Part shown: piece by piece, positions 143 to 32,403 of the stretch
Layout of the letters: every line of letters begins with the position of its first letter
Position numbering within the stretch: position 1 is the first letter of the stretch
NCBI GenBank assembly: GCA_949287505.1
Contig: CASEGX010000117.1
Coordinates: forward strand, 1 to 64,000
DNA length: 64,000 nt
Direction of reading: 5' to 3'
From: an uncultured Spirochaetales bacterium
Lineage (GTDB): Bacteria; Spirochaetota; Spirochaetia; Sphaerochaetales; Sphaerochaetaceae
The notes under the pieces: model-generated
Told to the model about the DNA's origin: nothing
What the model saw: the letters and a program-made list of their open reading frames with translations, nothing else
Databases searched by the model: none
Program-made: the position numbers and the translations under genes

Positions 143-1612
143 TCATGCCCAGACGGGGATGTACCTGATATATCTGTTTGAAGTCGCGTCATCCAGCGGT
201 TTGATTATCTGTTCCTTCACTGCTTCTTTGATCAGCCTTGATATGCTGGCTGAGTAAGTGTCTGCAAGGCCGAATCTTTCCCTTAGAGACTTGTTGGTCA
301 TTGCATCATCCTGGAGATACCTGATACTTGCATGCTGATATACGGCACGGAGTTTTTCCTCCCTTGGAATCATGGTGAAAGGAATCGCGGAATATAGAAC
401 CACTCTGGTGTTTTCTGTGTATATGACCATTCTGGGGGCAGGGAGCTGCATTGCTTCGGTTGCTATGACAATCTTGTCCCATCCTGTTCCCAGCTCTTCA
501 CACAGGTTGAAGCGCCTCATAAGTCTTGAGAGCTTCTCATTCCTTGATTTCGGAGGATTGTCGATGATTCTGTTTATATCGACGAGAGGAGTTCCTGGGT
601 TTGTCACCTCAATTCTGGTATCGAAGATCTCGATGGTTGTACCAGTACCCGTCATTGTCAGGTCTTGATGGATCATCGCATTAGCGATAACCTCCCTGAT
701 TGCAGTAGGTGGATAAGCGTATTCTGTCTCCCTGTAAGCGCCTTTTATGTCCTCACTTGTCGGGGTCATTGCATAGATGTACGTAAGGGCTTCTTCCATG
801 CATACAGCATAGCCCTTGTCCAAAGTTACTTCCTTCAGCATTCTTACTCGACTAGATCCGTCGTACTGGACAATTCTTATGGCTTTTCTGTCAAGCCTGG
901 AAAAGGAAGACAAGGTTTTTGCAAGAGTTATTCCTCCTAAATTGGTGATTGCATATTTCCCATTGTCCAGACGAGCTAGGATGTTCTCTTCAAGTAGATA
1001 ATGCGCGATACCTTCGTTGTCTGAGGGGAGAGGAAGCCGTCGGAGCTTGAAGTAAGCTGTATAATCTATGAGCCCGAAAGCTTCATTCAGAGTGAGATCC
1101 TGTTTCGCATATTGCATCTCGAAGTTTGTGTTGCGGAGTCTATCCCATAACTGGGCTTTCATGGCAGGCAGATCGCGGAGTTTCCTAGTATAGCTTCCTA
1201 CTCTGATATACTCCTCTTTCTTGAACGTGGATGGTTGTCCCAATGGCTTCTGGATTTCGATTATGAAGACAGTATTTCCATCGTAATCAACTGAGCGTGT
1301 TGAGAATTCAGTGTTAGAGGAAAGCATATGTGTGAGCCAGTTTGAAAGCTCCTCCATTGCACCTTCCTTATTGCCAACCTTCACCGATTGCAGATCCTCT
1401 GTTGTGCCGATAATTGCATGAGTGGTGTCATCAATACCCCATATCATATAGCTGCATGATCTCTCAGAAAGGACAGCACTGTTTGCGAGTGCAGATATAT
1501 CTTCTCCAATCATATCAGGCTTGAAGTTGTTTACCTTGAATTCAAGCCATGGTGTTTCACTTGGTAGTGCACAAAGCGCATCAATCAAATCTTTATCGTT
1601 ATTGTTCTTCAT
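143..1612 (-). CDS. AlbA_2 (Schlafen-type) / HATPase_c_4 regulator-like protein
   Basis: A 489-residue soluble protein. Residues about 17-145 match the AlbA_2 (divergent AAA_4/Schlafen-like) domain: PWLEFKVN near 21, then ISALANSAVLSE and YMIWGIDD. Residues about 295-420 look like the RecG-related HATPase_c_4 region (AIREVIANAMIHQDL, IEVTNPGTPL, RNEKLSRLMRRFNLCEELGTG), followed by a winged-helix-like tail that ends YIRYIPVWA, as is common in this family. Such proteins are often annotated as RecG-like helicases or transcription regulators, but no helicase core is present. The ATG at 1612 has an AGGTGG ribosome site. The gene sits in the mobile island downstream of the XRE gene, with an IS inserted at its stop codon. 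Its exact role is unknown; regulation or defence is plausible. Confidence 0.75.
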   Translation of the reverse strand: MKNNNDKDLIDALCALPSETPWLEFKVNNFKPDMIGEDISALANSAVLSERSCSYMIWGIDDTTHAIIGTTEDLQSVKVGNKEGAMEELSNWLTHMLSSNTEFSTRSVDYDGNTVFIIEIQKPLGQPSTFKKEEYIRVGSYTRKLRDLPAMKAQLWDRLRNTNFEMQYAKQDLTLNEAFGLIDYTAYFKLRRLPLPSDNEGIAHYLLEENILARLDNGKYAITNLGGITLAKTLSSFSRLDRKAIRIVQYDGSSRVRMLKEVTLDKGYAVCMEEALTYIYAMTPTSEDIKGAYRETEYAYPPTAIREVIANAMIHQDLTMTGTGTTIEIFDTRIEVTNPGTPLVDINRIIDNPPKSRNEKLSRLMRRFNLCEELGTGWDKIVIATEAMQLPAPRMVIYTENTRVVLYSAIPFTMIPREEKLRAVYQHASIRYLQDDAMTNKSLRERFGLADTYSASISRLIKEAVKEQIIKPLDDATSNRYIRYIPVWA

Positions 1613-6116: not shown

Positions 6117-6674
6117 ATGATAGTTGGTTACATCAGGGTCAGCACCGCTGATCAGAATCCTGCAAGGCAGGAAGAAGCATTGAAGAGCCATGGAGTCGAG
6201 AGAGTTTTCGAAGAGAAGATCTCTGGCAAGGACATGAACCGTCCGAAGCTGAAGGAGCTTCTGGATTTCGTGCGGGAAGGAGACACTGTGGTTGTCGAGT
6301 CCTATTCCCGTTTTGCCAGATCCACAAAGGATCTCCTCTTCATCATCGATAAGCTACAGGAGAAGAAAGTTTCTTTCGTCTCCTTGAAAGAGAACATCGA
6401 TACGACAACACCGCAGGGAAAGCTCATGCTCACGATCTTCGCTGGGCTTTCCCAGTTTGAACGTGAATGCACTCTTCAACGTCAGGCGGAGGGAATCGCT
6501 ATCGCCAAAGCAGAAGGCAAGTACAAGGGTCGTAAGCCAATCGAGATGCCAGCAGACTGGGATTATGTCATCAGGCTCTACAGAGCTAAGGAGCTGACAG
6601 CCGCACAGGCCCAGAAAAGGCTGGGCCTCAGCCATGCAACGTTTTATAGAATGTTAGCAAAACACCATGTTTGA
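6117..6674 (+). CDS. Serine recombinase (resolvase/invertase family)
   Basis: A 185-residue small serine recombinase. The start at 6117 follows GGGAGG and places the family's N-terminal motif MIVGYIRVSTADQNPARQ correctly, with nucleophile Ser9. Arginines of the active site lie in ESYSRFARSTKDL, and the dimer/E-helix region in PQGKLMLTIFAGLSQFERE is intact. The C-terminal 45 residues are a Hin-like HTH (LTAAQAQKRLGLSHATFYRM). It would resolve or invert DNA at short dyads such as those at 5807-6020. It lies 21 bp before the methyltransferase on the same strand and may be cotranscribed with the restriction operon, so it could move or switch that module. It looks complete. Confidence 0.9.
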   Translation: MIVGYIRVSTADQNPARQEEALKSHGVERVFEEKISGKDMNRPKLKELLDFVREGDTVVVESYSRFARSTKDLLFIIDKLQEKKVSFVSLKENIDTTTPQGKLMLTIFAGLSQFERECTLQRQAEGIAIAKAEGKYKGRKPIEMPADWDYVIRLYRAKELTAAQAQKRLGLSHATFYRMLAKHHV

Positions 6675-6695: not shown

Positions 6696-7721
6696 ATGAG
6701 GTACCCTGGCGCTATGGACAAAAGAACATCGTCTTCTCAAAAGAAGCGGAAAACGGAATTTAAATTCATTGATCTCTTCTCGGGAATTGGGGGCATGAGG
6801 CTTGGGTTTGAAGCCGCAGGAGGAAAATGCGTCTACTCCAGTGAGTGGGATGAGTATTGCAAGAAGACATATGAAGCAAATTTTGGTTCTAGACCAGATG
6901 GTGATATCACTAAAGTAGATGCAAAGCAGATTCCGGATCACGATATTTTGGTCGGTGGATTTCCCTGTCAGCCGTTTTCCATTGCTGGTGTTTCAAAAAA
7001 GACCAGCTTAGGACGGAAGACTGGATTTGAAGATGAAACACAAGGGACATTGTTCTTTGATGTTTGCAGAATATTGAAAGAGAAAAATCCTCCTGCATTC
7101 GTCCTTGAGAATGTTAAAAACATCAAGAGCCATGATCATGGAAATACATGGAGGGTAATTCTTGGGAGTTTGGAAGATCTAAACTATGACGTTGTTTTTA
7201 AGGATGTAATCGACGGGCAGAATTATGTTCCTCAGCATCGTGAAAGGGTTTTTATCATAGGTTTTCGGAAAGATCTTGAAGTGAAAGACTTTACTATTCA
7301 GGTTCATCCAGTCAAGCCGAAACCTTTGCTGAGAGATATCATGGAGCCTGAAGTTGATGCCAAGTACACTATATCTGAGCATCTTTGGAACTACCTGCAA
7401 GAGAGAAAAATCAAGCAGAGGGCAAAGGGTAATGGCTTTGGGTACAGCTTGGCATATCCTGATGGAATTACCCACACTTTGAGTGCCAGATATCATAAGG
7501 ATGGAGCTGATATTCTTATCCCCCAGGATGGGAAATGCCCTCGAAGACTAACACCTCGCGAATGTGCAAGGCTTCAAGGGTTCCCTGATTCCTTTATCAT
7601 ACCAGTCTGTGATGGAAGGGCATATAAACAGTTTGGGAATTCTGTTGTAGTGCCCCTCGTGGCTGATATTGCCAAGCAGGTATCGGACGAACTGAAGAAA
7701 GCGAAGAAGAGGATGAAATGA
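6696..7721 (+). CDS. DNA (cytosine-5) methyltransferase, Dcm/EcoRII type
   Basis: A 341-residue C5-MTase that transfers methyl from SAM to cytosine. Motif I is IDLFSGIGGMRLGF (25-38), motif IV GGFPCQPFS with catalytic Cys91, motif VI FVLENVKN, motif VIII QHRERVFIIGF, then TPRECARLQGFPDSF and motif X QFGNSVVVPL. The target-recognition region carries KGNGFGYSLAYPDG and THTLSARYHKDGADILI, very close to what I know of Dcm and M.EcoRII, which methylate CCWGG. A CCWGG or CCNGG-like site is therefore predicted, not shown. An ATG at 6714 is an alternative start. It overlaps the helicase by 4 bp (ATGA) and is the first gene of the six-gene operon, where it would protect host DNA. Confidence 0.93.
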   Translation: MRYPGAMDKRTSSSQKKRKTEFKFIDLFSGIGGMRLGFEAAGGKCVYSSEWDEYCKKTYEANFGSRPDGDITKVDAKQIPDHDILVGGFPCQPFSIAGVSKKTSLGRKTGFEDETQGTLFFDVCRILKEKNPPAFVLENVKNIKSHDHGNTWRVILGSLEDLNYDVVFKDVIDGQNYVPQHRERVFIIGFRKDLEVKDFTIQVHPVKPKPLLRDIMEPEVDAKYTISEHLWNYLQERKIKQRAKGNGFGYSLAYPDGITHTLSARYHKDGADILIPQDGKCPRRLTPRECARLQGFPDSFIIPVCDGRAYKQFGNSVVVPLVADIAKQVSDELKKAKKRMK

Positions 7722-9601
7722 GTGAGTGGAAAATTGATGGCAACCTCCTCTCCCTGGAGATTGATGGAAAGACATTCAATTTGTCCGGAGACGAGATTCT
7801 GGACATTGAAGACGGCAAGTCTGTTGAGATTGGAGGCAGCCTTGTACCAAAAGTCTCTAGCCAGTTACCTCAAATAGACTTTGGTCATGCTTGGGTTCGT
7901 TCCACAATCAAAGCGCAAATCTATGTTCCCCAGTCAAAAAACGAATTGATTCCCTGGTGTCAGTTCAAGGTTGTCGATTCTTTTTTCAAGTCACACGATA
8001 TACCTTTCTTGCCGTCTGATTACATTGTTGCGGACAATCTTTTTCTCATACTTGATCCTGATCAGGCTGCAGAACTCAAAACAAGTTTCAAGTCACATGC
8101 ATCTGGCCCTATTGGATATAAGCAGATTGCTCTGATACAGAAGAATCTATCCTCGAACGAGTACATTACATTTATTGAGAGTGATGAGCGTTGTGAAAAG
8201 CGGGCCCCAGATAGTCATGCAATTAGCAATGTCCGGTCTAGACTTTATCCGTACCAGCTAGCTGGTGTTCAATGGATGGGATCTGTTCTGGATGACGATG
8301 CAGGCTTTGTCCTTGCAGATGAAATGGGACTAGGAAAAACAGTCCAGATCATCACTGTCATCGATGAACAGCGAGAAAAGGGGCCAAGCCTTTTAATTGC
8401 GCCCAATTCCCTGATGGAAAACTGGTCAAGGGAGATTCAGAGATTTGCTCCATGGCTCTCGTTCACTGTTGATGCAGGAAAAACCAGAGAACATAACTAT
8501 CGTCGTCTTCTTGACTATAGCCTGGTGATCACCTCATATGATGTTGCCAGAGTCGACTTCATGGTCTTGGGTAGTATCGACTGGAACTTGATAGTCCTAG
8601 ATGAGGCTCAGAATATTAAAAACTACGGGACACACAGAAGCAAAGAAATCAGAAAATATCCCAAGCGAAGTGGAATAGCGGTGACAGGTACTCCGTTGGA
8701 AAACCACATTACTGATATCTGGTCAATCTACGACTTCTGCTTTCCTGGCCTGCTTGGCGATGTCAAAGCATTCAAGTCTGAGTTTGGGGACGATTTCGAC
8801 AGTGCTGAGAAACTCGAACGGATTATTACTCCTATCATGCTTCGCCGAAGATCTAAGGATGTTCTGAAAGATCTTCCTGACAAGGTGATTACGCCAATAG
8901 CCTTGGAGATGAATCCTGATGAAGCAGAAGGCTATGAGCGTATACGAATGGAAGCCATGGACGAAGATGGGAGAGTGAACCCGGGGATCCTGACTACACT
9001 CAGAATGTATTGTGCTTTACCGGAGATTGTCGACAATGACTTGAAATCCACTTCTCCTGCAGATACAAGTGCCAAGTTCGCCTATCTCTTCGAGGGCCTA
9101 TTGGACAAAATATATTCTCAGAAAGAAAAGGTGATCATTTTTACTGGGTGGGTGCAAGCTCAGGAAAAGATTCAATCCAACGTCCGGGCACGGTATGGGT
9201 CTTTCTGTGACATCTTGAATGGAGATGTTCCGATTGATGAACGGCAGAAGATGATAGACGAATTCAGCGAACGTATAGGATTTGCTGTCCTGATAATCAA
9301 CCCGACAGTAGGAGCAACAGGGCTCAATATCACAGCCGCAAATCATGTGGTCTTCTATACGTTGGACTGGAATCCTGCAACTGAGGACCAGTGCATAGCC
9401 CGGGCGGCCCGAATCGGCCAGAAAAAGACCGTGTTTGTTTATCGCCTTTTCTATTCCGACACCATTGAAGATGAAGTGAATGATTGCCTTGAACACAAGA
9501 GGAAATTACAGAATGCGACTGTTAAAGGCACAACAGCTGATGTCAGTCCTGATGTTCAGAAAGCACTTGGTCGCAGCCCGTTCTTGAGGAGAAGATCATG
9601 A
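7718..9601 (+). CDS. SNF2-family DNA helicase/translocase
   Basis: A 627-residue superfamily-2 ATPase. After an N-terminal extension of about 170 residues with no recognised domain comes the SNF2 core: LYPYQLAGVQWM, Walker A DEMGLGKT (201-208, Lys207), the DEAQ box (295-298), TGTPLENHITDIWSIYDF, LRRRSKDVLKDLP, and the C-terminal lobe with motif VI QCIARAARIGQ (arginines 562 and 565). No nuclease domain is fused to it, so cutting must come from a partner. SNF2 enzymes track on duplex DNA and occur in DISARM and in MORC-associated restriction systems. It overlaps both neighbours by 4 bp, which implies coupled translation. It probably moves along DNA after site recognition. Confidence 0.92.
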   Translation: MSEWKIDGNLLSLEIDGKTFNLSGDEILDIEDGKSVEIGGSLVPKVSSQLPQIDFGHAWVRSTIKAQIYVPQSKNELIPWCQFKVVDSFFKSHDIPFLPSDYIVADNLFLILDPDQAAELKTSFKSHASGPIGYKQIALIQKNLSSNEYITFIESDERCEKRAPDSHAISNVRSRLYPYQLAGVQWMGSVLDDDAGFVLADEMGLGKTVQIITVIDEQREKGPSLLIAPNSLMENWSREIQRFAPWLSFTVDAGKTREHNYRRLLDYSLVITSYDVARVDFMVLGSIDWNLIVLDEAQNIKNYGTHRSKEIRKYPKRSGIAVTGTPLENHITDIWSIYDFCFPGLLGDVKAFKSEFGDDFDSAEKLERIITPIMLRRRSKDVLKDLPDKVITPIALEMNPDEAEGYERIRMEAMDEDGRVNPGILTTLRMYCALPEIVDNDLKSTSPADTSAKFAYLFEGLLDKIYSQKEKVIIFTGWVQAQEKIQSNVRARYGSFCDILNGDVPIDERQKMIDEFSERIGFAVLIINPTVGATGLNITAANHVVFYTLDWNPATEDQCIARAARIGQKKTVFVYRLFYSDTIEDEVNDCLEHKRKLQNATVKGTTADVSPDVQKALGRSPFLRRRS

Positions 9602-10023
9602 TACAGGTCGTATGTAAACGACTGACAAAGAATGACCTCGGCTTGACAGGTGGGCATCAGGGAGGAATTTGTGTCCCATTCAAAGTGGCAAGGCTTAACT
9701 TCTTTCCTGCCTTGGACCCCAGTGAATACAATCCACGAGCAGATGTTGTCTTTGACTGCAAAGGAAAGACCTTCTGTTTTACGTACATCCATTACAATAG
9801 CCGCCTGCATAAGACCGGGACTCGAAATGAATATCGCCTGACCGGGATGTCGAAGTTTTTCAAGGAATATGACTGTTGCGAAGGGGATTTGCTGGAATTC
9901 TGTCTCAATGAGGGAAGGTATTCTATTGATATTAAGCATCGAAACATCGATGATGAGAAAGACGTGTTTGACCCGGATAAACCTTTGATTATCCGTTCCG
10001 ATTGGGCATACAAGAGGGGGTAA
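9598..10023 (+). CDS. Stand-alone EcoRII-N-like (B3-fold) DNA recognition protein
   Basis: A 141-residue protein that matches the N-terminal effector-binding domain of restriction enzyme EcoRII almost along its length: KRLTKNDLGLTGGHQGG (7-23), FFPALD, NP at 45-46, YIHYNSR (63-69) and TRNEYRLTG (75-83). From memory EcoRII has KRLSANDTGATGGHQ, IYYNSR and TRNEKR at the same places; the TRNE segment contacts CCWGG DNA. Residues R76, E78 and R80 are kept. The nuclease half of EcoRII is absent, so this should be a pure sequence reader. It sits between helicase and ATPase, overlapping the helicase by 4 bp. It likely guides the complex to the methylase's site. Confidence 0.85.
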   Translation: MIQVVCKRLTKNDLGLTGGHQGGICVPFKVARLNFFPALDPSEYNPRADVVFDCKGKTFCFTYIHYNSRLHKTGTRNEYRLTGMSKFFKEYDCCEGDLLEFCLNEGRYSIDIKHRNIDDEKDVFDPDKPLIIRSDWAYKRG

Positions 10024-10027
10024 TACC

Positions 10028-11656
10028 ATGAGTATTGAAGTTCTTATTCCAGATCCAGAAGTCTTGATCATGGGGTTGAGAGATACAGGTTACGATAGTA
10101 ATACTGCGTTGGCTGATGTTGTGGACAACTCGGTTGATGCTGGAGCTACTTGTATAAAGGTCAGCATTCAGCTTGATCGAAACAATAATCCGACAGTCAT
10201 GATTGCCGACAATGGTTGCGGAATGAATCGATCTGAGTTGATCGATGGAATGAAGTACGGCTCTTCAAGTACGTTGACGAAGGACCCGAAGAGGCTTGGT
10301 AAATTTGGCCTTGGTCTCAAGACCGCATCTACTGCTTTCTGTAAACGCTTTTCAGTGGTTTCAAGAGCAGCTACCAACGATCCTATCTACATGGCAACTT
10401 GGGATTTGGATAATGTTGCCAGGGAGAACAACTGGAATCTCGAGATTGTCGGAGAGGAGGATATTCCCAGAGTCTACAAGACCGTGTTCGATGACATCAC
10501 GAGAGATGAAGGGCATGGGACTCTTGTTGCTTGGGAGAAGGTTGATAGGCTTACTGCTAAAAAGAGCACATTGGATAGGATCGCTTCCAAATTTGCTGAT
10601 TATGCTTCGCTCATTTACCATCGTTTCCTTGATGAGGATGATGACAGGGCACGAACTCTTGAGATGAGCGTCAATGGAGTGAAGCTGGAACCCAATGATC
10701 CATTCTGCCTGAGGGAGATGAGGGAAGATGGATCAGGGACAATCACGACAGGACGAGCTAGAGACAAGGAATGCACAGTGCAGATGGAAGATGGTACTCA
10801 AAAAGAGTCCACTTTCCATCTTCAAGGCTATGTCCTACCAACAAAGGAGAGTTTTTCGTCCAAAGAATCGCTAGAAAGGGCTAACATCACCAACCATAAC
10901 ATGGGCTTCTATGTCTATAGAGAAAACCGGATGATAGCCTGTGGAGATTGGCTTGGTCTGAAAAAGGCGGAACCTCATGACTCATATTTCAGAGCTGAAT
11001 TCAGTTTTGACCACAACCTTGATGTCGCTTTCAAGATTGATGTGAAGAAGTCAAGAATCGAGCTCAATCCCGATCTTAGCAACTGGCTCAAAGAGTGGAT
11101 GGCTCCTGGTGTCAAGATGGCAGAAGAGCGATATCGGAGAAAAGTCGATGATACCGTTCTGGAAGATTCTCCCAAGTATCATGTGGAGTCTGACAAGAAC
11201 ATTGTCGATAAAGAAGCTCTGGTTGTCGAGTCGAAGATCAAACCTGTTGGAGATGTTCAGGCTGATGGAACGCAGAAGGTTGAAATTACAAACGCAAACA
11301 CTCCAAACGGACCTTGTGTTGTATCTATAACCATTGCTCCGGATGAAACCCCTGGAGTGTCCATTCTCACTAGCGACAATGTGAAGGGTGGAGCTTTGTG
11401 GGAGCCTACTTTCAAGGATGATCATCAGAGTGTAATCATCAATACGAACCATCCTTTCTATCAGAAGGTATACTTCCCTAACCACAAGAATGGCATTGCA
11501 GTCTCAGGTCTTGATGATCTTCTGTGGGCTTGTGCTTGTGCTGAATTCGGAACAGTCAATGATTATCAGAAAAAGGATTTCAAGGATTTTAGAATGAAAG
11601 TATCCAGCATTCTGGAAACCTTGGTTGAAGATTTGCCGGAGCCGGAAATAGGTTGA
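10028..11656 (+). CDS. MORC/MutL-like GHKL ATPase of the restriction operon
   Basis: A 542-residue protein with a GHKL ATP-binding domain: ALADVVDNSVDA (27-38, Mg-binding Asn34), IADNGCGM (60-66), and the lid motif GKFGLGLKTAS (91-101), followed by an S5-like transducer region with KKSRIELNPDLSNW near 345. The usual general-base Glu of the N box is Asp30, which I believe is normal in this bacterial subgroup. Such ATPases dimerise on ATP and clamp DNA. Comparative work by Iyer, Abhiman and Aravind linked them to restriction-modification loci and to eukaryotic MORC proteins. The C-terminal 150 residues are unassigned. It starts 4 bp after the reader gene, and the HNH gene follows after 14 bp. 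Confidence 0.88.
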   Translation: MSIEVLIPDPEVLIMGLRDTGYDSNTALADVVDNSVDAGATCIKVSIQLDRNNNPTVMIADNGCGMNRSELIDGMKYGSSSTLTKDPKRLGKFGLGLKTASTAFCKRFSVVSRAATNDPIYMATWDLDNVARENNWNLEIVGEEDIPRVYKTVFDDITRDEGHGTLVAWEKVDRLTAKKSTLDRIASKFADYASLIYHRFLDEDDDRARTLEMSVNGVKLEPNDPFCLREMREDGSGTITTGRARDKECTVQMEDGTQKESTFHLQGYVLPTKESFSSKESLERANITNHNMGFYVYRENRMIACGDWLGLKKAEPHDSYFRAEFSFDHNLDVAFKIDVKKSRIELNPDLSNWLKEWMAPGVKMAEERYRRKVDDTVLEDSPKYHVESDKNIVDKEALVVESKIKPVGDVQADGTQKVEITNANTPNGPCVVSITIAPDETPGVSILTSDNVKGGALWEPTFKDDHQSVIINTNHPFYQKVYFPNHKNGIAVSGLDDLLWACACAEFGTVNDYQKKDFKDFRMKVSSILETLVEDLPEPEIG

Positions 11657-11670
11657 GGATTCTTGGATAA

Positions 11671-12537
11671 ATGAATATTGCCTCTCTCGTCTCGACAATC
11701 AAAGATGATTTATATTCCGTCTATCATATTGAGTGGGATGTTCGTGTGGTCGAGATGGGAGAAGGTGATGTCAACCTAGCTATTTTCCCATCTGCTGTGG
11801 CGGGAGAATGTGTCATAGGTTTCAATCTATATCTCTTTTATACACGGCTGGATATGGAAATGGCGGTTGAGAATGAACCGCCGCTTATGATAGGTGTTTT
11901 CAGAGGTGTCGAGAGGAATGGGAAAGCAAATATTGCCCAGATAGAAGCCTTTGAGACGCTTTTGCGAGGAGCCAAAGGTCATCTCATCTACAGGGTTAAT
12001 GGTGGAACCTTTTCTGATGCGCCTTTGAAAGAGCATATGAACGAGCGATGGTCATATTTCTCTCTCAGATATGAGAGTGACTACCTGGATGTTCATACAC
12101 GACTTGATTTCGATTATCAGGAAATACGTCATCATGTTTTGAACTTTGCTGGGCTTATTCTGCTTTTTTCCAGTTACCAGGCCAAGGAAGAGCTTGCTCT
12201 GTACGAAGAGGGCAAGTCATACATGGAGACAAGCGTTAGATATGAAAGAAACCCCATAAACAGGGCCTTATGCCTTGAAAATAAAGGTTATTGTTGCTCT
12301 GTTTGTGGAATCGATATGGAAAAGGTTTATGGCAGTCCTGGTCGCGAGTTCATTGAGGTTCATCATTCGATTCCAGTTTCCGAGTATGGGCAAGAGAGAT
12401 TGATTGATCCGCTCGCTGAGCTATTCCCTGTTTGTCCAAACTGCCATGCCATGTTGCATCGCCGGAAGCCTCCTTATTCAATAGATGAGTTGAAGCAACT
12501 CATGAATGACGCCAGTGGTGAAAGAGGAAAGAAATGA
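11671..12537 (+). CDS. HNH endonuclease (McrA-like) of the restriction operon
   Basis: A 288-residue protein. The N-terminal 190 residues have no recognised domain. The C-terminal 85 residues form a zinc-bound HNH nuclease: CCSVC (208-212), EVHHSIPVSE with His231-His232, DPLAELFPVCPNCHAMLH with Cys255, Cys258, His259 and His263. The layout is that of McrA-type HNH enzymes, which nick or cut DNA with one metal ion. It is the only obvious nuclease in the operon and so the likely effector. Its stop overlaps the start of the AIPR gene by 4 bp. The N-terminus may bind DNA or a partner; nothing in the sequence shows which. Confidence 0.88.
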   Translation: MNIASLVSTIKDDLYSVYHIEWDVRVVEMGEGDVNLAIFPSAVAGECVIGFNLYLFYTRLDMEMAVENEPPLMIGVFRGVERNGKANIAQIEAFETLLRGAKGHLIYRVNGGTFSDAPLKEHMNERWSYFSLRYESDYLDVHTRLDFDYQEIRHHVLNFAGLILLFSSYQAKEELALYEEGKSYMETSVRYERNPINRALCLENKGYCCSVCGIDMEKVYGSPGREFIEVHHSIPVSEYGQERLIDPLAELFPVCPNCHAMLHRRKPPYSIDELKQLMNDASGERGKK

Positions 12538-14648
12538 AAGTTGTAGTGAAGTCCGATAAACAAGCTGAAGACCGTTATACATCATTTATGCATGATCTCG
12601 ATGCGATGTGCATTGTAGATGGATATTCATCACGTGAAACGGCTTTTATTGCCGACAGGTGTCAGTTTCTGGTCGATCAGGATGTGTTGCAGAGCTTTAA
12701 TGTGGTTCAATATGCAGACGAGTCATGTCGAATTGATGCCTGGGGGCTCAAACCTGCAATTGATGGTAGCAGCAACGACTCCATAGTCCTGATTATCAGC
12801 GACTTCTTTGATCAAGATTCGCTAGCCGCCATAACCCTGACTGACTTCAGGGCATATTGCAACAAGGCAAAACGATTTTTCCAGAATGCGTTGAAAGATG
12901 AATTCAGGCTTTTGCATCTTCCTGCCAACTCATCTGCTGCCCAGTTTGCCGATTATATATACAAGCGCCGCAATGAGGATCAGCAGGTAACCATCATTGG
13001 AATTACAAATGGCTCGGTTGTATCGAAAAGCAACAAGCTTGTCATTGCGGAAAATACCACAACAACAGTGACGTTCCGTTACGACATATGGGATTTTGCC
13101 AGGTTTGCCAGAATAGAGCGTTCTCTTGGAGGCAGAGAGTCAGTCGATATAGATCTTGTAAACGATTATGAACTTCCTGAAGGGATTAAGTCCCTTCATG
13201 TAGAGAATGGCAGTTCTGAAATTGATTCATATCTCTTTGTGTTGCCAGGCAAAGTGCTTTACGAAATGTATGAACAATGGAATGAACGGCTTTTAGAGCA
13301 GAATCCTCGCACATTCTTGCAGTTCACAGGGAAGATCAACAAGGGAATCAGAGGGACGCTCACCAACAATCCTGATAGATTCTTCAGCTACAACAACGGC
13401 ATAGCAGCTGTAGCAAACAGGGTCGACATCGATCCTGTGACAGGTAACATCAACAAGATCTACAACCTTCAGATTGTCAATGGCGGACAGACAACGGCTT
13501 CAATCTACAATGCATATTACAGGTCAATGAAGGACAAGAAGCCGATTGCTATCGACAAAGTCTATGTAATGGTCAAGCTGTCTGTAATTGGTCGACAGGA
13601 GCTTGCTGATCAGATCATCCCAAGGATTTCAGAATTCTCGAACTCGCAAAATAAAGTTGCTTCTTCTGCTTTCTCGATTCGCCATCCTTTCCATATGAAG
13701 ATGGAGGAGTACTCAAGAAATATCCATGCACCGGCAAACGGAGACCAGCAGGAGACCTTCTGGTACTACGAGAGAGTACAGGGCCAGTACAAGAATGCAA
13801 TCAATATCAGGCATTCAAGTGCAGAGAAGAAGTCTTTTGAGTCCCAGAATCCCAAATCCCAGATGTTCAAAAGTGTTGAACTGGCAAAGTATGTCATGGC
13901 ATTTGACATGAAACCATATCAGGTCTGTCTCGGCAGTCAGAAATGCTATGCTCTCTTCTCGAAGGAATATCTGAAGACAGATGATGATGGACAAGGCATT
14001 GTCGGGCCTGAAATCAATCAGGATTACTTCAAGGAAGTTTGCTGTAAAGCTCTCATCTTCAAATACATCGAGAAGCACGCAGGACGTGGGCTTCAGTTTG
14101 TCCTTGCGCCATATACAATCGCAGTGTTGATGAAGAATCTTCAGGAAAAGGGGCTTAATCTCAATTATACGCTCATCTGGAACAAACAATGGGATAATGA
14201 AGCGTTGTTCTCCTTGTTGATGACCTATGTTGATGTTGTGTACAAAGTCTTGGCCGAGTCGATGCCTGAGGGAATTCAGATTTTCTCCGAATGGGGCAAG
14301 AAGAAAGAATGCTGGGACAAGTATGCTCAGCAGATACAGCTCGACCTGATGCCTATCATCGAATATACAGTCTCTCAGGATGAGTATTTGGCAACTGTAA
14401 AAGAACATAAAAGCAATGCTGTCATGATCAAGGGAATCGAGGCTCAGACTTATGTTGTCAGCAAACCTGCTTCATATTGGACCAGTTTGATGAGATGGAT
14501 CCACAAGGGGAACATGTCAATTACTTCGAAGGAAGATGGCATTCTATCTTATGCAACCAAGATTCCGTACAAGATTCCTTCCGACAAGCAGTCCGAGGTC
14601 ATCATCAGGATAGAAAAGAGGGCTGTTGATAGTGGCTTCTCAGGTTGA
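12534..14648 (+). CDS. AIPR-family (abortive infection phage resistance) protein
   Basis: A 704-residue protein of the AIPR family (Pfam PF10592). The signature blocks are present: LEQNPRTFLQFTGKINKGIR (about 254-273), NPDRFFSYNNGIAAVA, NLQIVNGGQTTASIYNAY (311-328) and a helical region with SEFSNSQNKVASSAF. The N-terminal 240 residues include a region that may be restriction-endonuclease-like (DAWGLKPAIDGSSNDSIVLI), but no clear PD-(D/E)XK triad can be confirmed by eye. AIPR genes repeatedly sit beside methylases, SNF2 or Z1 helicases and MORC ATPases in phage-defence loci. The molecular activity of the family is not settled. It is the last gene of the operon, and no terminator was found behind it. 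Confidence 0.88.
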   Translation: MKVVVKSDKQAEDRYTSFMHDLDAMCIVDGYSSRETAFIADRCQFLVDQDVLQSFNVVQYADESCRIDAWGLKPAIDGSSNDSIVLIISDFFDQDSLAAITLTDFRAYCNKAKRFFQNALKDEFRLLHLPANSSAAQFADYIYKRRNEDQQVTIIGITNGSVVSKSNKLVIAENTTTTVTFRYDIWDFARFARIERSLGGRESVDIDLVNDYELPEGIKSLHVENGSSEIDSYLFVLPGKVLYEMYEQWNERLLEQNPRTFLQFTGKINKGIRGTLTNNPDRFFSYNNGIAAVANRVDIDPVTGNINKIYNLQIVNGGQTTASIYNAYYRSMKDKKPIAIDKVYVMVKLSVIGRQELADQIIPRISEFSNSQNKVASSAFSIRHPFHMKMEEYSRNIHAPANGDQQETFWYYERVQGQYKNAINIRHSSAEKKSFESQNPKSQMFKSVELAKYVMAFDMKPYQVCLGSQKCYALFSKEYLKTDDDGQGIVGPEINQDYFKEVCCKALIFKYIEKHAGRGLQFVLAPYTIAVLMKNLQEKGLNLNYTLIWNKQWDNEALFSLLMTYVDVVYKVLAESMPEGIQIFSEWGKKKECWDKYAQQIQLDLMPIIEYTVSQDEYLATVKEHKSNAVMIKGIEAQTYVVSKPASYWTSLMRWIHKGNMSITSKEDGILSYATKIPYKIPSDKQSEVIIRIEKRAVDSGFSG

Positions 14649-14781
14649 AGAAAAGATGTTGGCGGACTCTCGCTGGACTGCAACCTTCTTTGAAATTGAA
14701 TCAACTGTAAGCCTGAGAAAGGAACGGTATTCGGCTCAAATCATTTCAGCAAAACATTGCAGTTGAGCCCTGGAAATGAAA

Positions 14782-14806
14782 CAACTCCCTGACTTGCAGA
14801 GAGTTG
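14782..14806 (-). terminator. Weak hairpin after the tRNA-Ala gene
   Basis: On the minus strand CAACTC and GAGTTG (14801-14806 and 14782-14787) can pair around a 13-base loop, followed by GTTTC. It lies 8 bases beyond the tRNA 3' end, where a terminator is expected, but the U tract is poor. It may instead be part of an attachment-site arm. Confidence 0.3.
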
Positions 14807-14813
14807 CTTGTGT

Positions 14814-14887
14814 TGGAGATGATCGGAATCGAACCGACTACCTATTGAATGCCATTCAATCGCTCTAGCCAAGTGAGCTACATCCCC
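14814..14887 (-). tRNA. tRNA-Ala (anticodon GGC)
   Basis: The minus strand folds as a full cloverleaf of 74 bases. The acceptor stem GGGGATG pairs with CATCTCC and includes the G3-U70 pair that marks alanine tRNAs. The anticodon stem ATTGA/TCAAT encloses the loop ATGGCAT, giving anticodon GGC, and the T arm carries GGTTCGAATCC. CCA is not encoded. Its 3' end points at the mobile island, as usual when integrases use a tRNA 3' end as attachment site. The gene itself looks intact. Confidence 0.9.
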
Positions 14888-26156: not shown

Positions 26157-26804
26157 ATGAAAAGAAAAATAATTGCATTCATCATATTCTTTATCGTTCT
26201 TTCTTCTTTGGGTGCTGAGAGAAAGGAAATGAGCAAAAGCTTCCAGATTCAGGGAGCCTATGGAACCGTAACAGAGCTTGCAATAACTCCTATTCCTGCT
26301 CAGTCACAGAATTATCGTATTGGTATGCCTTTCAATGTTGAGGATGTGCAGGTTCAGTCCACACAGGAAGCAGGCAGAAAGATTGCTGAGTGGTCTCTTA
26401 TCTCAAATACGAGGTTCCTTCTCAAGATAAAAGCCACGAAACTGACGTTTAATGGAGAATCAGCAACAGCAGAGCCTCTGGATTATGTAATCACATTTGC
26501 TTACAGGCTGACAGATACTGTTGGAACACAGCATTTCCAGTACAACACGGAGTCAGGGGCCGCAAACCTTGTTGGTTCAAGTGAAGCCGGGGCAACTGGT
26601 GAGAAGGATGGTGAGTACACCGTCATCGATATCCTCGGTCCTGAATTCACTGAGGAGTACTTCAGTAACTCATATATCGGAATACTCAATGAGAGTATTT
26701 ATTTCAAATTCACACAGTCAGCTTCTGCAAAAGTCCAGGATGATGATCTTGTCCCTCCCGGCGAATATTCAGCTGTAGTGACACTGTTAATAGAGGGGGA
26801 ATGA
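26157..26804 (+). CDS. Exported protein of the chaperone-usher operon, subunit 2
   Basis: A 215-residue protein with a short signal peptide (MKRKIIAFIIFFIVLSSLGA). The mature part is beta-rich; LISNTRFLLKIKATKLTFNG occupies the place of the FW-strand seen in the later paralogues, and the C-terminus LVPPGEYSAVVTLLIEGE has the proline/glycine-tyrosine-strand pattern of pilus subunits. The ribosome site is GGAGGG, and the next gene starts 1 bp after its stop. A structural or tip role is inferred only from context. Confidence 0.65.
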   Translation: MKRKIIAFIIFFIVLSSLGAERKEMSKSFQIQGAYGTVTELAITPIPAQSQNYRIGMPFNVEDVQVQSTQEAGRKIAEWSLISNTRFLLKIKATKLTFNGESATAEPLDYVITFAYRLTDTVGTQHFQYNTESGAANLVGSSEAGATGEKDGEYTVIDILGPEFTEEYFSNSYIGILNESIYFKFTQSASAKVQDDDLVPPGEYSAVVTLLIEGE

Positions 26805-26805
26805 T

Positions 26806-28197
26806 ATGAAGAAAGTATTGGCATTATTTATCGTCATCATTGCACTATCATCCTCATTGTTTGCTTATGAATATAAAGTGGGAGATGTTCAGAGCCGCTT
26901 TAACAGCGAGTCAAACATGGCTGTAATGCCTTACGATGGTGCATTCGGCGTTAATCTCAGAGACACTGGTTCTTATCCTGTACGTAATGGAAATGTGGAG
27001 TATCGAGATGGTTCCATCATTAAAAATGATGCTTCCCATTATTTTGATGACCAGATGGTTGCTAACGGAATCATTGAAGGAGTATTTAAACGAATCGAAT
27101 GGTTTGAAAATTACCGTACAGACCGTTATAGATATGATTTAGAGAAAGTTTCTTCTATGACTCTACGTGTCGACTGTTCTTCTGACTTCATGTTTGTATC
27201 GCAGTCTGATGATTCATATAAGCGCCCATTTTATTTATATGTACTTCCGCGAGCTGTCAGCGGAGAGAACAAATATGCAGGAGATCCTACTGGAACGATT
27301 GCACCGATTCTTGTAACTGACAGTTCTCCGGTAGAGATACCTGCACCATCAAATTTTGATGACTATACTTCCATCTGGTTCGATCTGCTTCTTGCACTCC
27401 CTGGAGAGGTCACAGATGAAGGTGTAACGGTAGAGAATACCTTTTACCCGCTCTCGGACGCCGATGATTATACAGCAGAAGTCACAATAACAATTGAGTG
27501 GACTGGTATTTACGCAATAAAGTACTCTTCTTGGTCGCTTATTGGATGGTGGGATGATGATGAGCAAATTGGTACTGAAACAGTTACAGTAGAACGTACC
27601 ATGACAATACCATTCTCAGGATATTGTTCATTTGATGAACAAGAATCTACAGGAAGTCTTTATATAAGTACGACATCTGAATCTCAGGAAATCAACCTTA
27701 ATCCTGATGCTGCATCGACTGTGAAGGTTGCGGATATATCCTATCTTGTTAATTTCGGACACGGGCTTGGAGGCTCTCAGCCTGCATACGATGATTCAAA
27801 GGCCTGGATGTTCCTCTCTGCAAGCCCGGATCCTGGAAGTTCTTTGCAGGATGGATTCAGACTTGTTAATCAGAACGCGACAGGAAGTCTTACTGATTAC
27901 AACAGCGTTCCTTTCCTTGTGACTGTTGAAGGAAATGGTCAGTTCATAGAGTTTGATGGAAGAGCAAAAGCTTCTGATTTCACACCTGATGGTGGTATAG
28001 ATACCGAATATATTGAGACTGCATGTATATGGGAACAACATCGATTTAATAGCTCAAATAATAGCAACAGTCAGTATTACCACTCCCATAATTTTGAAGG
28101 CGAGGTTTTTGTTGAGGTAACTCCAAAATCTGATCTTATAGCACCTGGTCGATATGTCGGCGACATATATGTTCATGTAATTACGAATGGAGATTGA
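26806..28197 (+). CDS. Large exported protein of the chaperone-usher operon (possible tip adhesin)
   Basis: At 463 residues it is about twice the size of its neighbours. It has a signal peptide (MKKVLALFIVIIALSSSLFA), an aromatic- and Asp/Asn-rich N-terminal domain of about 280 residues, and a C-terminal half ending DLIAPGRYVGDIYVHVITNG, the same last-strand pattern as the small subunits. A two-domain protein with one pilin-like domain and one extra domain is the layout of tip adhesins in chaperone-usher systems. I infer that role, but no binding motif is recognised. Its stop overlaps the next start (TGATG). Confidence 0.65.
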   Translation: MKKVLALFIVIIALSSSLFAYEYKVGDVQSRFNSESNMAVMPYDGAFGVNLRDTGSYPVRNGNVEYRDGSIIKNDASHYFDDQMVANGIIEGVFKRIEWFENYRTDRYRYDLEKVSSMTLRVDCSSDFMFVSQSDDSYKRPFYLYVLPRAVSGENKYAGDPTGTIAPILVTDSSPVEIPAPSNFDDYTSIWFDLLLALPGEVTDEGVTVENTFYPLSDADDYTAEVTITIEWTGIYAIKYSSWSLIGWWDDDEQIGTETVTVERTMTIPFSGYCSFDEQESTGSLYISTTSESQEINLNPDAASTVKVADISYLVNFGHGLGGSQPAYDDSKAWMFLSASPDPGSSLQDGFRLVNQNATGSLTDYNSVPFLVTVEGNGQFIEFDGRAKASDFTPDGGIDTEYIETACIWEQHRFNSSNNSNSQYYHSHNFEGEVFVEVTPKSDLIAPGRYVGDIYVHVITNGD

Positions 28198-28775
28198 TGA
28201 ATATGACAGTAAAAAAGATATTGGCTTTGATTTTTATCTCTTTGCTGGTCTTCTCTCTGTTCGCAGAAGACCATAGGCACCTTTCTCTGAGCGCTACTGT
28301 TCCAGAGGATTTTGGCATTGCCTTTCCACCCGGGGCAATAAAGCTTGATAGATTTGTTTTTGAGTTTGGATTTGAAGCTGATGAAACCAGACTGCTTGAT
28401 GAATGGGTGCTGCCAATCGGGGAAATAGAAGCTGCAACTGGTTCTCGGAATCTTAGTCTTCTTTATTATGGAAACTCTTCTTCCGTATATGATGTGACTC
28501 TCAATTTCTCTATCAGTGATATGACACTTAAAGATTCTGATAACGGGATATCAATTCCTTTGGGTATGGAATTCAGCACGAATCCATATGTCGATGATGA
28601 TATCGAAGTCTATGCAGAGCAAGACGTCGATTCTGTCAGGGTTATTATACCACCGGCGGGGGAGCGCATAGGTGTTCCTGTCGTGGATATGAGGTTTTAT
28701 TGGGATATTTCCGATGGCATTATGCCCGGGGATTATGAGGCAGAGCTCCGTATAGAGCTTCTGGAAAATAATTAA
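28197..28775 (+). CDS. Exported protein of the chaperone-usher operon, subunit 4
   Basis: A 192-residue protein. The ATG at 28197 overlaps the previous stop and follows GGAG; an ATG at 28203 is also possible. Signal peptide (MTVKKILALIFISLLVFSLF, cut near AED). The mature part is beta-rich with SLLYYGNSSSVYDVTLNFSI and ends GIMPGDYEAELRIELLENN, again the G-x-Y plus alternating strand of a subunit. No family is recognised. Confidence 0.65.
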   Translation: MNMTVKKILALIFISLLVFSLFAEDHRHLSLSATVPEDFGIAFPPGAIKLDRFVFEFGFEADETRLLDEWVLPIGEIEAATGSRNLSLLYYGNSSSVYDVTLNFSISDMTLKDSDNGISIPLGMEFSTNPYVDDDIEVYAEQDVDSVRVIIPPAGERIGVPVVDMRFYWDISDGIMPGDYEAELRIELLENN

Positions 28776-28790
28776 GGAGGAATCAAGAAA

Positions 28791-29429
28791 ATGATTCGTA
28801 AAGGAATAGCTGTTGCCATTGTTCTCTTGCTTGTACTGAATGCTATGTTCGCAGATGATTTAGCTACAGGAACGTCTGAGATTACACTCAGTCTGAAGAA
28901 TGGAACCGGTGATGAGGAGAATCCGGTTTTGACGCCTTCGTATAAGGTTGGATTTACAAATGAGTCCAGTGTTACTGCAGAAACAGATATGAATGGTAAA
29001 ACAGTCGATAAAGTCGTACTGTCAGATGCCACTGCAGATGCACAGCTTGTTGCTACTGGTTCTGTGAATATGTTTTATCAGATTATCAGCAGCGATCCAG
29101 TCCATGTAAAGATTACTGGAGAAGCTCTTGCTTCTACAAAGCTGGCAGGTGTGGAAGGTAATGAAGACACTATTGACTGGGATGCAGAATTCACGCCGAA
29201 AACAAATGAATCCGCAGGATCTAAGACTTCTTTTGGCTATAGCGAAGGAACAAAAGATTATTCAACAGGTGCTGTAATTTTCACACATAATCCTTCTGCA
29301 ACAAATGGAACCGTTGGATCAAGCGGTGTTATCCCTGTGACTTTTACAACTCAGGATGCTTCAAAAAACACTATTGATGATTACACCGCAACAATAACAC
29401 TGACTGTTACGGAAGGATTATCAGACTGA
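28791..29429 (+). CDS. Exported pilin-like protein, paralogue A
   Basis: A 212-residue protein with signal peptide MIRKGIAVAIVLLLVLNAMF. It shows the motif set shared by this family: SVNMFYQIISSDPVHVKITG (an F/Y-aromatic strand), then TIDWDAEF, and a C-terminal strand TIDDYTATITLTVTEG. AAGGAGG ribosome site, 15 bp after the previous gene. It is probably a repeated or alternative pilus subunit assembled by the upstream chaperone and usher. Confidence 0.68.
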   Translation: MIRKGIAVAIVLLLVLNAMFADDLATGTSEITLSLKNGTGDEENPVLTPSYKVGFTNESSVTAETDMNGKTVDKVVLSDATADAQLVATGSVNMFYQIISSDPVHVKITGEALASTKLAGVEGNEDTIDWDAEFTPKTNESAGSKTSFGYSEGTKDYSTGAVIFTHNPSATNGTVGSSGVIPVTFTTQDASKNTIDDYTATITLTVTEGLSD

Positions 29430-29444
29430 TAGGTAACGGAAGCA

Positions 29445-29990
29445 ATGATAAAACGTATAGGGCTGGTGATAATCTTACTGTTTTTCTCTTTCTGCTGTTT
29501 TGCAGGAGAGGTGCTTGATAATGCGGATATGACGCTGATTTTTGATATGAAAAACAGTTCTCATGATATCCGCATATTCGGCTTCTCCTCGGAGCCTGTT
29601 GAAGTATTTGATCAGGCTTCAGAGGAGCAGCTTGAACTGGAAACATCAGGCTCTGATAGTGATTTTCATGCCAGCTCGACGTTTTATGCATATTGGTATG
29701 TTTCGTCTGTTCAGCCGTTTGAGATCATTCTTTCTGGGACATCGCTTCAGAATGAGAAATCGATATGGGATTGGGTATGCTATTGGGATTCTCTCCAGGA
29801 GGGGCAGCAGACTTCTGTTGTCCTGAGTTCTATTGGCAGGGAAGCGGGAGAGCTTCTATATGAGCATGATCCAATGAATGGAATAACTTCTGAAGGAATG
29901 GTTGAGATTTCCCTTGAAACTCTGGCATCTGGCAACCTTATTCCAGGTACATACCAAGGGACCATTACGATGGGAATTGCGGGGAAATGA
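29445..29990 (+). CDS. Exported pilin-like protein, paralogue B
   Basis: A 181-residue protein with signal peptide MIKRIGLVIILLFFSFCCFA. Family motifs: TFYAYWYVSSVQPFEIILSG, then SIWDWVCYW, and the last strand LIPGTYQGTITMGIAGK. It is one of the shortest members and sits 1 bp before the next gene. The start at 29445 has a weak AACGGAAGC ribosome site, so coupling to the preceding gene is likely. Confidence 0.65.
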   Translation: MIKRIGLVIILLFFSFCCFAGEVLDNADMTLIFDMKNSSHDIRIFGFSSEPVEVFDQASEEQLELETSGSDSDFHASSTFYAYWYVSSVQPFEIILSGTSLQNEKSIWDWVCYWDSLQEGQQTSVVLSSIGREAGELLYEHDPMNGITSEGMVEISLETLASGNLIPGTYQGTITMGIAGK

Positions 29991-29991
29991 T

Positions 29992-30549: not shown

Positions 30550-30563
30550 GGAGGGATAATACA

Positions 30564-31208: not shown

Positions 31209-31209
31209 G

Positions 31210-31857: not shown

Positions 31858-31870
31858 TAAAGGAGGAGCG

Positions 31871-32392: not shown

Positions 32393-32403
32393 TAGGCAGG
32401 ATA

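What the first reader, a model, noticed from the sequence alone, without database searches (positions are those of the whole stretch)
6696..14648. Six-gene restriction-like defence operon: Dcm-type MTase, SNF2 helicase, EcoRII-N reader, MORC-like ATPase, HNH nuclease, AIPR protein
Six genes in a row, three joints with 4-bp overlaps and the rest within 14 bp, combine parts that individually occur in phage-defence loci. The MORC/MutL-type ATPase with SNF2 helicase and methylase recalls restriction loci described by Iyer, Abhiman and Aravind, but the addition of a free-standing EcoRII-N reader together with HNH and AIPR proteins is a combination I do not know as a named, tested system. The model: methylase marks self sites, reader finds unmarked sites, ATPase clamps, SNF2 translocates, HNH cuts; AIPR may act as a further effector. 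It lies in a mobile island beside a tRNA, where defence genes cluster.
Basis: partly seen in the sequence, partly recalled or inferred. Interest (0 to 1): 0.85.

Follow-up and report, generated by a model that had tools for sequence, protein, structure and literature searches.

The report
MORC–SNF2 restriction operon with EcoRII-like reader
A six-gene bacterial DNA-defence operon is really there; five of its genes form a widespread, apparently untested restriction machine of a kind predicted in 2008, and the sequence suggests which DNA site it checks, so it can be tested simply.

Summary
The six genes are present as described. Five (Dcm-type methylase, SNF2 ATPase, EcoRII-N reader, MORC ATPase, HNH nuclease) form a recurrent unit. 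Of 80 relatives kept from a scan of 84,980 species genomes, 63 have SNF2, reader and MORC (61 also HNH); 15 have SNF2, MORC and HNH with an unknown family, X, instead of the EcoRII-N reader. All 50 loci with at least 6 kb on both sides carry a C5-methylase. AIPR is optional (8 of 80). The class is not new in print: Iyer, Abhiman and Aravind (2008) described SWI2/SNF2-type MORC operons with HNH or EcoRII-like nucleases and a VP1/RAV (B3-like) DNA-binding protein; methylases and Vsr are frequent neighbours. I found no experimental test. Added here: the core is defined; the likely target is CCWGG (Dcm-like TRD, EcoRII-N motifs, frequent EcoRII-C and Vsr neighbours); EcoRII-C is not needed; reader type and methylase TRD change together, though over few events. 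Best explanation: ATP-dependent restriction-modification of unmethylated CCWGG DNA.

The parts
6696..7721 (+). Dcm-type cytosine-C5 DNA methyltransferase (341 aa), TRD like E. coli Dcm
   Evidence: Pfam DNA_methylase 2.6e-94; TRD core 70% identical to E. coli Dcm over 30 residues
7718..9601 (+). SWI2/SNF2 superfamily-2 ATPase (627 aa)
   Evidence: Pfam SNF2-rel_dom 1.7e-53, Helicase_C; of 73 SNF2 relatives scoring over 500, Walker A pattern in 72 and DEAQ/H-type pattern in 73
9598..10023 (+). Free-standing EcoRII-N (B3-like) DNA reader (141 aa)
   Evidence: Pfam EcoRII-N 4.7e-11; family profile vs EcoRII effector domain 3hqf 5.4e-14 and RAV1 B3 domain 1wid 1.2e-6
10028..11656 (+). MORC-family GHKL+S5 ATPase (542 aa)
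   Evidence: HATPase_c_3 6.6e-30; profile vs human MORC2 6.8e-11; GFYVYRENRMI (residues 293-303) fits the MORC-specific GhXhhpXXRhl motif given by Iyer 2008
11671..12537 (+). HNH nuclease protein (288 aa): ~180-aa N-terminal domain + C-terminal HNH domain
   Evidence: Pfam HNH 5.2e-06; profile vs EcoKMcrA 6ghc 1.9e-8 (name); H231 H232 C255 C258 H259 H263 invariant in 45 sequences; model pLDDT 87
12534..14648 (+). AIPR-family protein (704 aa), optional accessory gene
   Evidence: Pfam AIPR 1.7e-78, AIPR_N 4.4e-18; AIPR in 8 of 80 relatives; Q[IV]VNGGQTTAS in 10 of 10 AIPR sequences of the set
6117..6674 (+). Serine recombinase just upstream, part of the island
   Evidence: Pfam Resolvase 1.6e-45; 90% identical copy at the same place in L014
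3106..4359 (+). Tyrosine integrase-like gene of the island
   Evidence: Phage_integrase 8.2e-05, below Pfam's curated cut-off; 76% identical copy in L014
14780..14834 (+). att-like 55-bp stretch overlapping the tRNA-Ala 3' end
   Evidence: Similar copies bracket a 485-aa ORF beside the same tRNA/asd site in G321 and occur twice on G000 contig 119
14814..14887 (-). tRNA-Ala(ggc), likely integration target
   Evidence: ARAGORN; one unbroken match of tRNA end plus asd in 9 of 40 genus genomes including the own one, elsewhere tRNA piece and asd match apart or in part

Best explanation
This is an ATP-dependent, multi-subunit restriction-modification system. The Dcm-type methylase puts 5-methylcytosine on the host's own CCWGG sites (inferred from its TRD). 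The free-standing EcoRII-N protein is the site reader and brings the complex to CCWGG that lacks the mark (inferred). The MORC ATPase dimerises on ATP and clamps or loops DNA, and the SNF2 ATPase moves or remodels the complex along DNA (inferred from families). The HNH protein makes the cut (inferred; its HNH residues are intact). AIPR is an optional added effector or regulator. Shown by the sequences: gene order, conservation, intact motifs, constant presence of a methylase gene, and a reader slot that another family can fill. Not shown: binding, cleavage, defence, and the CCWGG target itself.
For: Co-occurrence: 63 of 80 loci have SNF2+EcoRII-N+MORC, 61 of these also HNH; exactly the 15 other loci with SNF2 have X+SNF2+MORC+HNH, and no locus has both EcoRII-N and X; the last 2 (L027, a 4.1-kb contig; L077, MORC near a contig end) show neither reader nor SNF2. 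Found in many phyla including one archaeon. A methylase lies in 50 of 50 loci with at least 6 kb on both sides; the 11 loci without one scoring over 200 are all cut by a contig end, three of them with a methylase fragment. Target: TRD core shared with E. coli Dcm (window 70%; 59 methylases of EcoRII-N loci mean 73%; 14 of X loci 58%); EcoRII-N motifs NDxGxTGxHQ and TRNExR both in 59 of 73 reader sequences, split pieces counted in the 73; EcoRII-C nuclease in 24 of 63 EcoRII-N loci and 0 of 15 X loci (Fisher p 0.0036, not corrected for kinship), Vsr in 41 of 63 and 8 of 15. EcoRII-C was not detected in 22 of 40 EcoRII-N loci with full flanks nor in the window, so the unit stands without it. Reader and TRD change together: Y..T[IL]SARY in 14 of 14 readable X methylases; of 60 methylases from EcoRII-N loci (plasmid loci included, three two-methylase loci apart) 58 lack it, 1 (L047) has a Tyr by chance, 1 has no such stretch. 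In the three loci with diverged readers (TRNE -> HNE) there are two methylase ORFs, and the one whose TRD could be read lacks the Dcm-type stretch. Closest tested analogue: CglI/NgoAVII (PMC4267653, abstract and two sections read): C5 methylase + B3-like nuclease + SF2 ATPase, ATP-dependent site-specific cleavage.
Against: No experiment. Dcm-like TRDs also occur, as I recall, in CCNGG methylases, so CCWGG rather than CCNGG is not proven. Three EcoRII contact positions that I recall (Tyr41, Lys92, Lys97) are not kept in the window protein. X is not recognised as a DNA-binding fold, so calling it a reader is positional. The MORC motif-I acid is Asp in 84 of 85 sequences (1 not matched) where GHKL ATPases usually have Glu (recalled). 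The 80 loci are the best-scoring part of 155 relatives. In the window's own phylum the MORC family is rare: 4 of 296 genomes at E <= 1e-20, and the three besides the own one are only 32-39% identical.
Confidence: 0.6

Rival explanations
1. Infection-triggered abortive system: the MORC/SNF2/reader/HNH set senses foreign or damaged DNA and AIPR is the toxic effector; the methylase only keeps the set silent.
For: AIPR is in the operon here and in L014 and L020, and near the set in other loci; in the MZA system MzaE is an AIPR protein and MzaB an ATPase by NCBIfam name, and PMC9523054 (passages) calls mzaABCDE validated; AbiU1/AIPR is described as often linked to RM (PMC3506569, passages).
Against: No AIPR detected in 72 of 80 loci, nor in 44 of the 50 with full flanks; no conserved RX4-6H (HEPN-like) motif in 10 AIPR sequences.
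Confidence: 0.15
2. Type IV-like: the HNH/reader complex cuts DNA with foreign or altered cytosine modification rather than unmethylated CCWGG.
For: The HNH domain is nearest by sequence to EcoKMcrA, a modification-dependent nuclease.
Against: A C5 methylase gene is present in 50 of 50 full-flank loci, as expected if the methylase must protect the host. The N-terminal part of the HNH protein was not recognised as a modified-base reader, which excludes nothing.
Confidence: 0.12
3. The four genes are helpers of an EcoRII R-M system (repair, regulation, loop control), not a nuclease system of their own.
Against: EcoRII-C is not detected in the window, in 22 of 40 full-flank EcoRII-N loci or in any of 15 X loci; the HNH residues are invariant in 45 sequences.
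Confidence: 0.1

Closest known systems
SWI2/SNF2-type MORC restriction-modification operons predicted by Iyer, Abhiman and Aravind 2008 (PMC2292703)
   Same: MORC + SWI2/SNF2 + HNH or EcoRII-like nuclease + VP1/RAV DNA-binding protein; methylases and Vsr as frequent neighbours; AIPR in the Figure 2 legend
   Different: There a list of frequent neighbours; here a five-gene core with optional AIPR/Vsr/EcoRII-C, a predicted CCWGG target, and an alternative reader family X
CglI / NgoAVII / BceSIV ATP-dependent R-M systems (PMC4267653)
   Same: C5 methylase + B3-like DNA-binding domain + nuclease + SF2 ATPase (CglI, NgoAVII); ATP hydrolysis needed for cutting
   Different: Z1-type ATPase, PLD nuclease with B3 domain in one protein, no MORC among the three genes, GCSGC/GCWGC-type sites
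MZA (MzaABCDE) anti-phage system
   Same: MzaB (170 bits) and MzaE (240 bits) are distant relatives of the MORC and AIPR proteins
   Different: Both far below the NCBIfam cut-offs (850, 1050); no Z1 or MzaD match listed for these six proteins; SNF2, EcoRII-N and HNH instead
EcoRII Type IIE R-M system
   Same: Dcm-type methylase and EcoRII-N effector domain
   Different: No EcoRII-C nuclease detected in the window; reader is a separate protein; two ATPases and HNH instead
DISARM class 2
   Same: The DrmMII profile matches the methylase strongly (3e-139)
   Different: DrmD models match the SNF2 protein far below cut-off (116.5 vs 950 and 46.2 vs 610 bits); no DrmA or DrmB in the listed hits of the six proteins

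Membership tests
SWI2/SNF2-type MORC R-M operon (Iyer 2008) | MORC family: GHKL ATPase plus GhXhhpXXRhl motif in the S5 domain | tested here: met
   GFYVYRENRMI at residues 293-303; G293, Y295, Y297, R298, E299, R301, I303 invariant in 7 sequences; profile hit to human MORC2; motif text
SWI2/SNF2-type MORC R-M operon (Iyer 2008) | SWI2/SNF2 helicase in the operon | tested here: met
   78 of 80 relatives
SWI2/SNF2-type MORC R-M operon (Iyer 2008) | HNH or EcoRII-like nuclease (often) | tested here: met
   HNH protein
SWI2/SNF2-type MORC R-M operon (Iyer 2008) | VP1/RAV-type (B3-like) DNA-binding protein (in some neighbourhoods) | tested here: met
   EcoRII-N match and RAV1 B3 match
SWI2/SNF2-type MORC R-M operon (Iyer 2008) | Restriction activity | not testable with these tools
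   Needs experiment
MZA | MzaB and MzaE above the NCBIfam cut-offs | tested here: not met
   170.2 vs 850 and 240.3 vs 1050 bits
MZA | Z1-domain MzaC and MzaD | tested here: not met
   No Z1 in Pfam and no MzaC or MzaD in NCBIfam for the six proteins; PADLOC lists were capped at 25 for two proteins
EcoRII Type IIE R-M | EcoRII-N fused to an EcoRII-C catalytic domain | tested here: not met
   Reader is 141 aa alone; no EcoRII-C or Vsr profile match in any window ORF
EcoRII Type IIE R-M | CCWGG methylase | tested here: inconclusive
   Dcm-like TRD; specificity not measured, CCNGG not excluded
CglI/NgoAVII | Z1 SF2 ATPase and PLD nuclease with B3 domain | tested here: not met
   SNF2 ATPase and HNH instead; no Z1 or PLD Pfam match
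DISARM | DrmA and DrmB | tested here: inconclusive
   Not in the PADLOC hits listed for the six proteins, but only the best 25 families per protein are listed and neighbours were not scanned

The most novel reading that the evidence does not exclude
A distinct, still unnamed mechanistic class of ATP-dependent restriction-modification: a conserved MORC+SNF2+HNH motor-nuclease that takes its site specificity from a separate, exchangeable reader subunit (EcoRII-N for CCWGG, or the uncharacterised family X for another site), with methylase TRD and reader evolving together and with optional effectors (AIPR, EcoRII-C, Vsr) plugged in. It would give a prokaryotic MORC a defined substrate.
Probability: 0.45. 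Interest if true: 0.75.

Novelty: new member of a known kind. Interest (0 to 1): 0.55.

Why it matters
Prokaryotic MORC proteins were predicted in 2008 to work in restriction systems; I found no experimental test of this type of operon in the open-licence library searched (listings). This family makes the question directly testable: a likely target site (CCWGG), a laboratory host whose own Dcm methylation can switch protection on or off, and separate genes for reader, clamp, motor and nuclease. It may also bear on how eukaryotic MORC silencing proteins arose.

Tried and rejected
Viral contigs: a scan with the window MORC found no relative. Phage records: 3 partial MORC matches, none covering 80%. 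X family in plasmids: no match. X by Pfam and PADLOC: only hits below cut-off or insignificant. X fold: model pLDDT 73; no Foldseek match with E <= 0.001 and no VIA match with Z of 5 or more, so it can be called neither a B3 domain nor anything else. HNH N-terminal domain: one Foldseek match with E <= 0.001, a DUF1054-type protein (2a8e, E 6.3e-5, TM 0.37; VIA Z 8.0 at 4.6 A), then CapZ/dynactin-type matches at VIA Z about 5 to 7.6; not used as evidence. AIPR in solved structures: nothing below E 0.028. HEPN-like motif in AIPR: not conserved. Left att site: none found in the window; the window starts at base 1 of its contig, so the left end of the island may be missing. Promoter and terminator scan: no excess over shuffles. 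My first regular expressions for GHKL and HNH motifs failed and were redone; the redone HNH pattern matched 64 of 76, and the five misses printed lack the proline after HH. A first TRD pattern failed and was replaced by an alignment. Considered and rejected: filing under MZA (cut-offs not met), EcoRII (no EcoRII-C), CglI (no Z1/PLD).

Sampling limits: the genome scan kept the best 80 of 155 relatives, chosen by similarity to the window MORC. Of the nine plasmid records with a reader match I opened seven and left H3 and H5 unopened; I also opened H10, which has SNF2 and MORC but no reader match. Profiles for counting were built from the same loci that were counted. AIPR, EcoRII-C and Vsr counts depend on such profiles and on at most about 10 kb of flank, so distant or far copies may be missed. 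In the three two-methylase loci one methylase of each pair was extracted only in part by my script, so its TRD was not read.
Full report
Observation. The six ORFs, their coordinates, the three 4-bp overlaps and the two short gaps (4 and 14 bp) are as reported. Pfam gives DNA_methylase, SNF2-rel_dom/Helicase_C, EcoRII-N, HATPase_c_3, HNH and AIPR/AIPR_N, all above the curated cut-offs. PADLOC and NCBIfam give no named system: the MORC and AIPR proteins resemble MzaB and MzaE but score far below the NCBIfam cut-offs (170 vs 850 and 240 vs 1050 bits), and Pfam finds no Z1 domain in the six proteins. The best PADLOC hits are MTase_II/DrmMII for the methylase and ZorD for the SNF2 protein.

Conservation. 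tblastn against plasmids found 56 records with a MORC relative and 9 with the free-standing EcoRII-N protein; those 9 are the nine best MORC records. Seven of the nine were opened; all seven have SNF2, EcoRII-N, MORC (split in L007), HNH and a Dcm-type methylase close together. A scan of 84,980 species genomes with a MORC alignment gave 155 relatives, of which the best 80 were kept. Scored with profiles for eight families: 63 loci have SNF2+EcoRII-N+MORC (61 with HNH), 15 have SNF2+MORC+HNH without EcoRII-N, and 2 show neither reader nor SNF2 (L027, a 4.1-kb contig, and L077, where MORC is near a contig end). Of the 80, 50 loci hold at least 6 kb on both sides of MORC, and all 50 have a C5 methylase in the locus. 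The set spans Pseudomonadota, Bacillota, Bacteroidota, Acidobacteriota, Spirochaetota, Verrucomicrobiota, Actinomycetota, Fibrobacterota and a Thermoplasmatota archaeon, among others. In the window's own phylum it is rare: 4 of 296 genomes have a MORC relative at E <= 1e-20, and the three besides the own one are 32-39% identical; two of these lie beside a methylase, and no other core gene was found in the short loci held.

AIPR is accessory. The 10 AIPR sequences examined share Q[IV]VNGGQTTAS and no conserved RX4-6H motif.

Which DNA site. Three lines point to CCWGG. The methylase TRD core of the window is 70% identical to that of E. coli Dcm; 59 methylases of EcoRII-N loci average 73% and 14 of X loci 58% (the rest of the protein is also less similar in X loci, 43% vs 56%, so the TRD figure alone is not specific). 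By recall (the EcoRII structure paper is not held) these stretches hold the contact residues His36, Arg94, Glu96 and Arg98, which the window keeps, whereas Tyr41, Lys92 and Lys97 differ. Finally, EcoRII-C nuclease genes lie in 24 of 63 EcoRII-N loci and in 0 of 15 X loci, and Vsr genes in 41 of 63 and 8 of 15. CCNGG is not excluded.

A second reader family. The 15 loci with SNF2 but without EcoRII-N have, directly before SNF2, a protein of a shared family ('X'), mostly about 270 aa, four with a ~100-aa N-terminal extension and one (L053) of 188 aa, without a Pfam match above cut-off in the eight tested. A profile of X matches exactly these 15 loci among all loci held at that point, so EcoRII-N and X exclude each other in this set. 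The MORC tree places X loci inside the EcoRII-N loci, with one or two origins (parsimony 2 changes, at least 1 forced by well-supported branches). Their methylases share a different TRD stretch, Y..T[IL]SARY, in 14 of 14 (the fifteenth is truncated), against 1 chance case (L047) among 60 methylases from EcoRII-N loci, of which 58 lack it and 1, a second unrelated methylase in L089, has no such stretch. Three further loci (L072, L076, L082), one clade with support 100, have readers in which TRNE became HNE, and two methylase ORFs each; the one whose TRD could be read has no Dcm-type stretch. This is what a reader/methylase match predicts, but the independent events are about two or three, so I treat it as suggestive. 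The X model (pLDDT 73) resembles no solved fold convincingly, which excludes no fold.

Not merely a helper of EcoRII. EcoRII-C was not detected in 22 of 40 EcoRII-N loci with full flanks, and neither EcoRII-C nor Vsr in any ORF of the 64-kb window. H231 H232 C255 C258 H259 H263 of the HNH protein are invariant in a 45-sequence alignment, and the SNF2 Walker A and DEAQ/H patterns are present in 72 and 73 of 73 SNF2 sequences scoring over 500.

Mechanism. I propose an R-M machine: methylase protects CCWGG; the EcoRII-N reader recruits the complex to unmethylated CCWGG; the MORC dimer clamps or loops DNA; SNF2 moves or remodels; HNH cuts. Shown: gene content, order, motifs. Inferred: every activity. 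The nearest tested analogue is CglI/NgoAVII, in which a C5 methylase, a B3-containing nuclease and an SF2 ATPase make a system with ATP-dependent, site-specific cleavage. Iyer et al. proposed that MORCs in such operons loop DNA between the recognition and cleavage sites (passage).

Island. G302 contig 73 has the length (25,920) of the contig of L014, an uncultured Spirochaetales bacterium, and the same genes, so they are taken as the same record. L014 carries the same integrase-like gene, recombinase and six genes beside the same tRNA-Ala. A 55-bp stretch at 14780-14834 covering the tRNA 3' end occurs twice around a 485-aa ORF in G321. The left end was not found.

Literature. Iyer 2008 already described this class of operon. 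Other searches. Only PMC2292703 held four of AIPR, SNF2, HNH endonuclease, Dcm, Vsr, EcoRII. No test of the system was seen in these listings, but the library holds open-licence papers only, and newer DefenseFinder models were not available. PMC9523054 (passages) describes Z1-type relatives; PMC12137116 (passages) a GHKL-Shedu protein that defends against phage.

Verdict. Real, widespread and testable; a member of a class predicted in 2008 and, as far as I could search, untested. Interest 0.55; the modular-reader reading deserves 0.75 if true.

Noticed in passing
window 6696-14648 vs L014 6690-14614: Uneven divergence from the nearest relative: methylase 83% and AIPR 86% identical, but SNF2 66%, reader 62%, MORC 67% and HNH 56%. 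The restriction module seems to evolve faster than its two flanking genes, or was exchanged.
   Followed up: partly
window 10028-11656, MORC motif I; 85 sequences: The motif-I acidic residue is Asp in 84 of 85 MORC sequences (1 not matched) where GHKL ATPases usually have Glu (recalled); it may slow ATP hydrolysis.
   Followed up: no
L039 1686-2801, L052, L057, L063: Four X proteins carry a ~100-aa N-terminal extension (with NENPNNIKNMRDEFDPYFDN) absent from the other X proteins.
   Followed up: no
L007 8986-10604; L015; L085: MORC split in two ORFs in the Sphingomonas melonis plasmid; reader split in L015 and L085: possibly decayed copies or sequencing errors.
   Followed up: no
G000 contig 119 (L101) 714-766 and 2197-2249: Two more copies of the tRNA-end att-like stretch about 1.5 kb apart, around a 345-aa ORF that was not identified.
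   Followed up: partly
window 146-1612: Schlafen/AlbA_2 plus RecG-like C-terminal protein near the contig start; G321 has at the same tRNA site, between two att-like copies, a 485-aa protein that looks AlbA-like by eye.
   Followed up: partly
window 26157-33012: Run of about ten ORFs of 181-463 aa on one strand after a 1090-aa ORF; the three tested (26157, 26806, 30564) have no Pfam match.
   Followed up: no
window 35679-38057: BspA-type leucine-rich-repeat protein, 793 aa.
   Followed up: no
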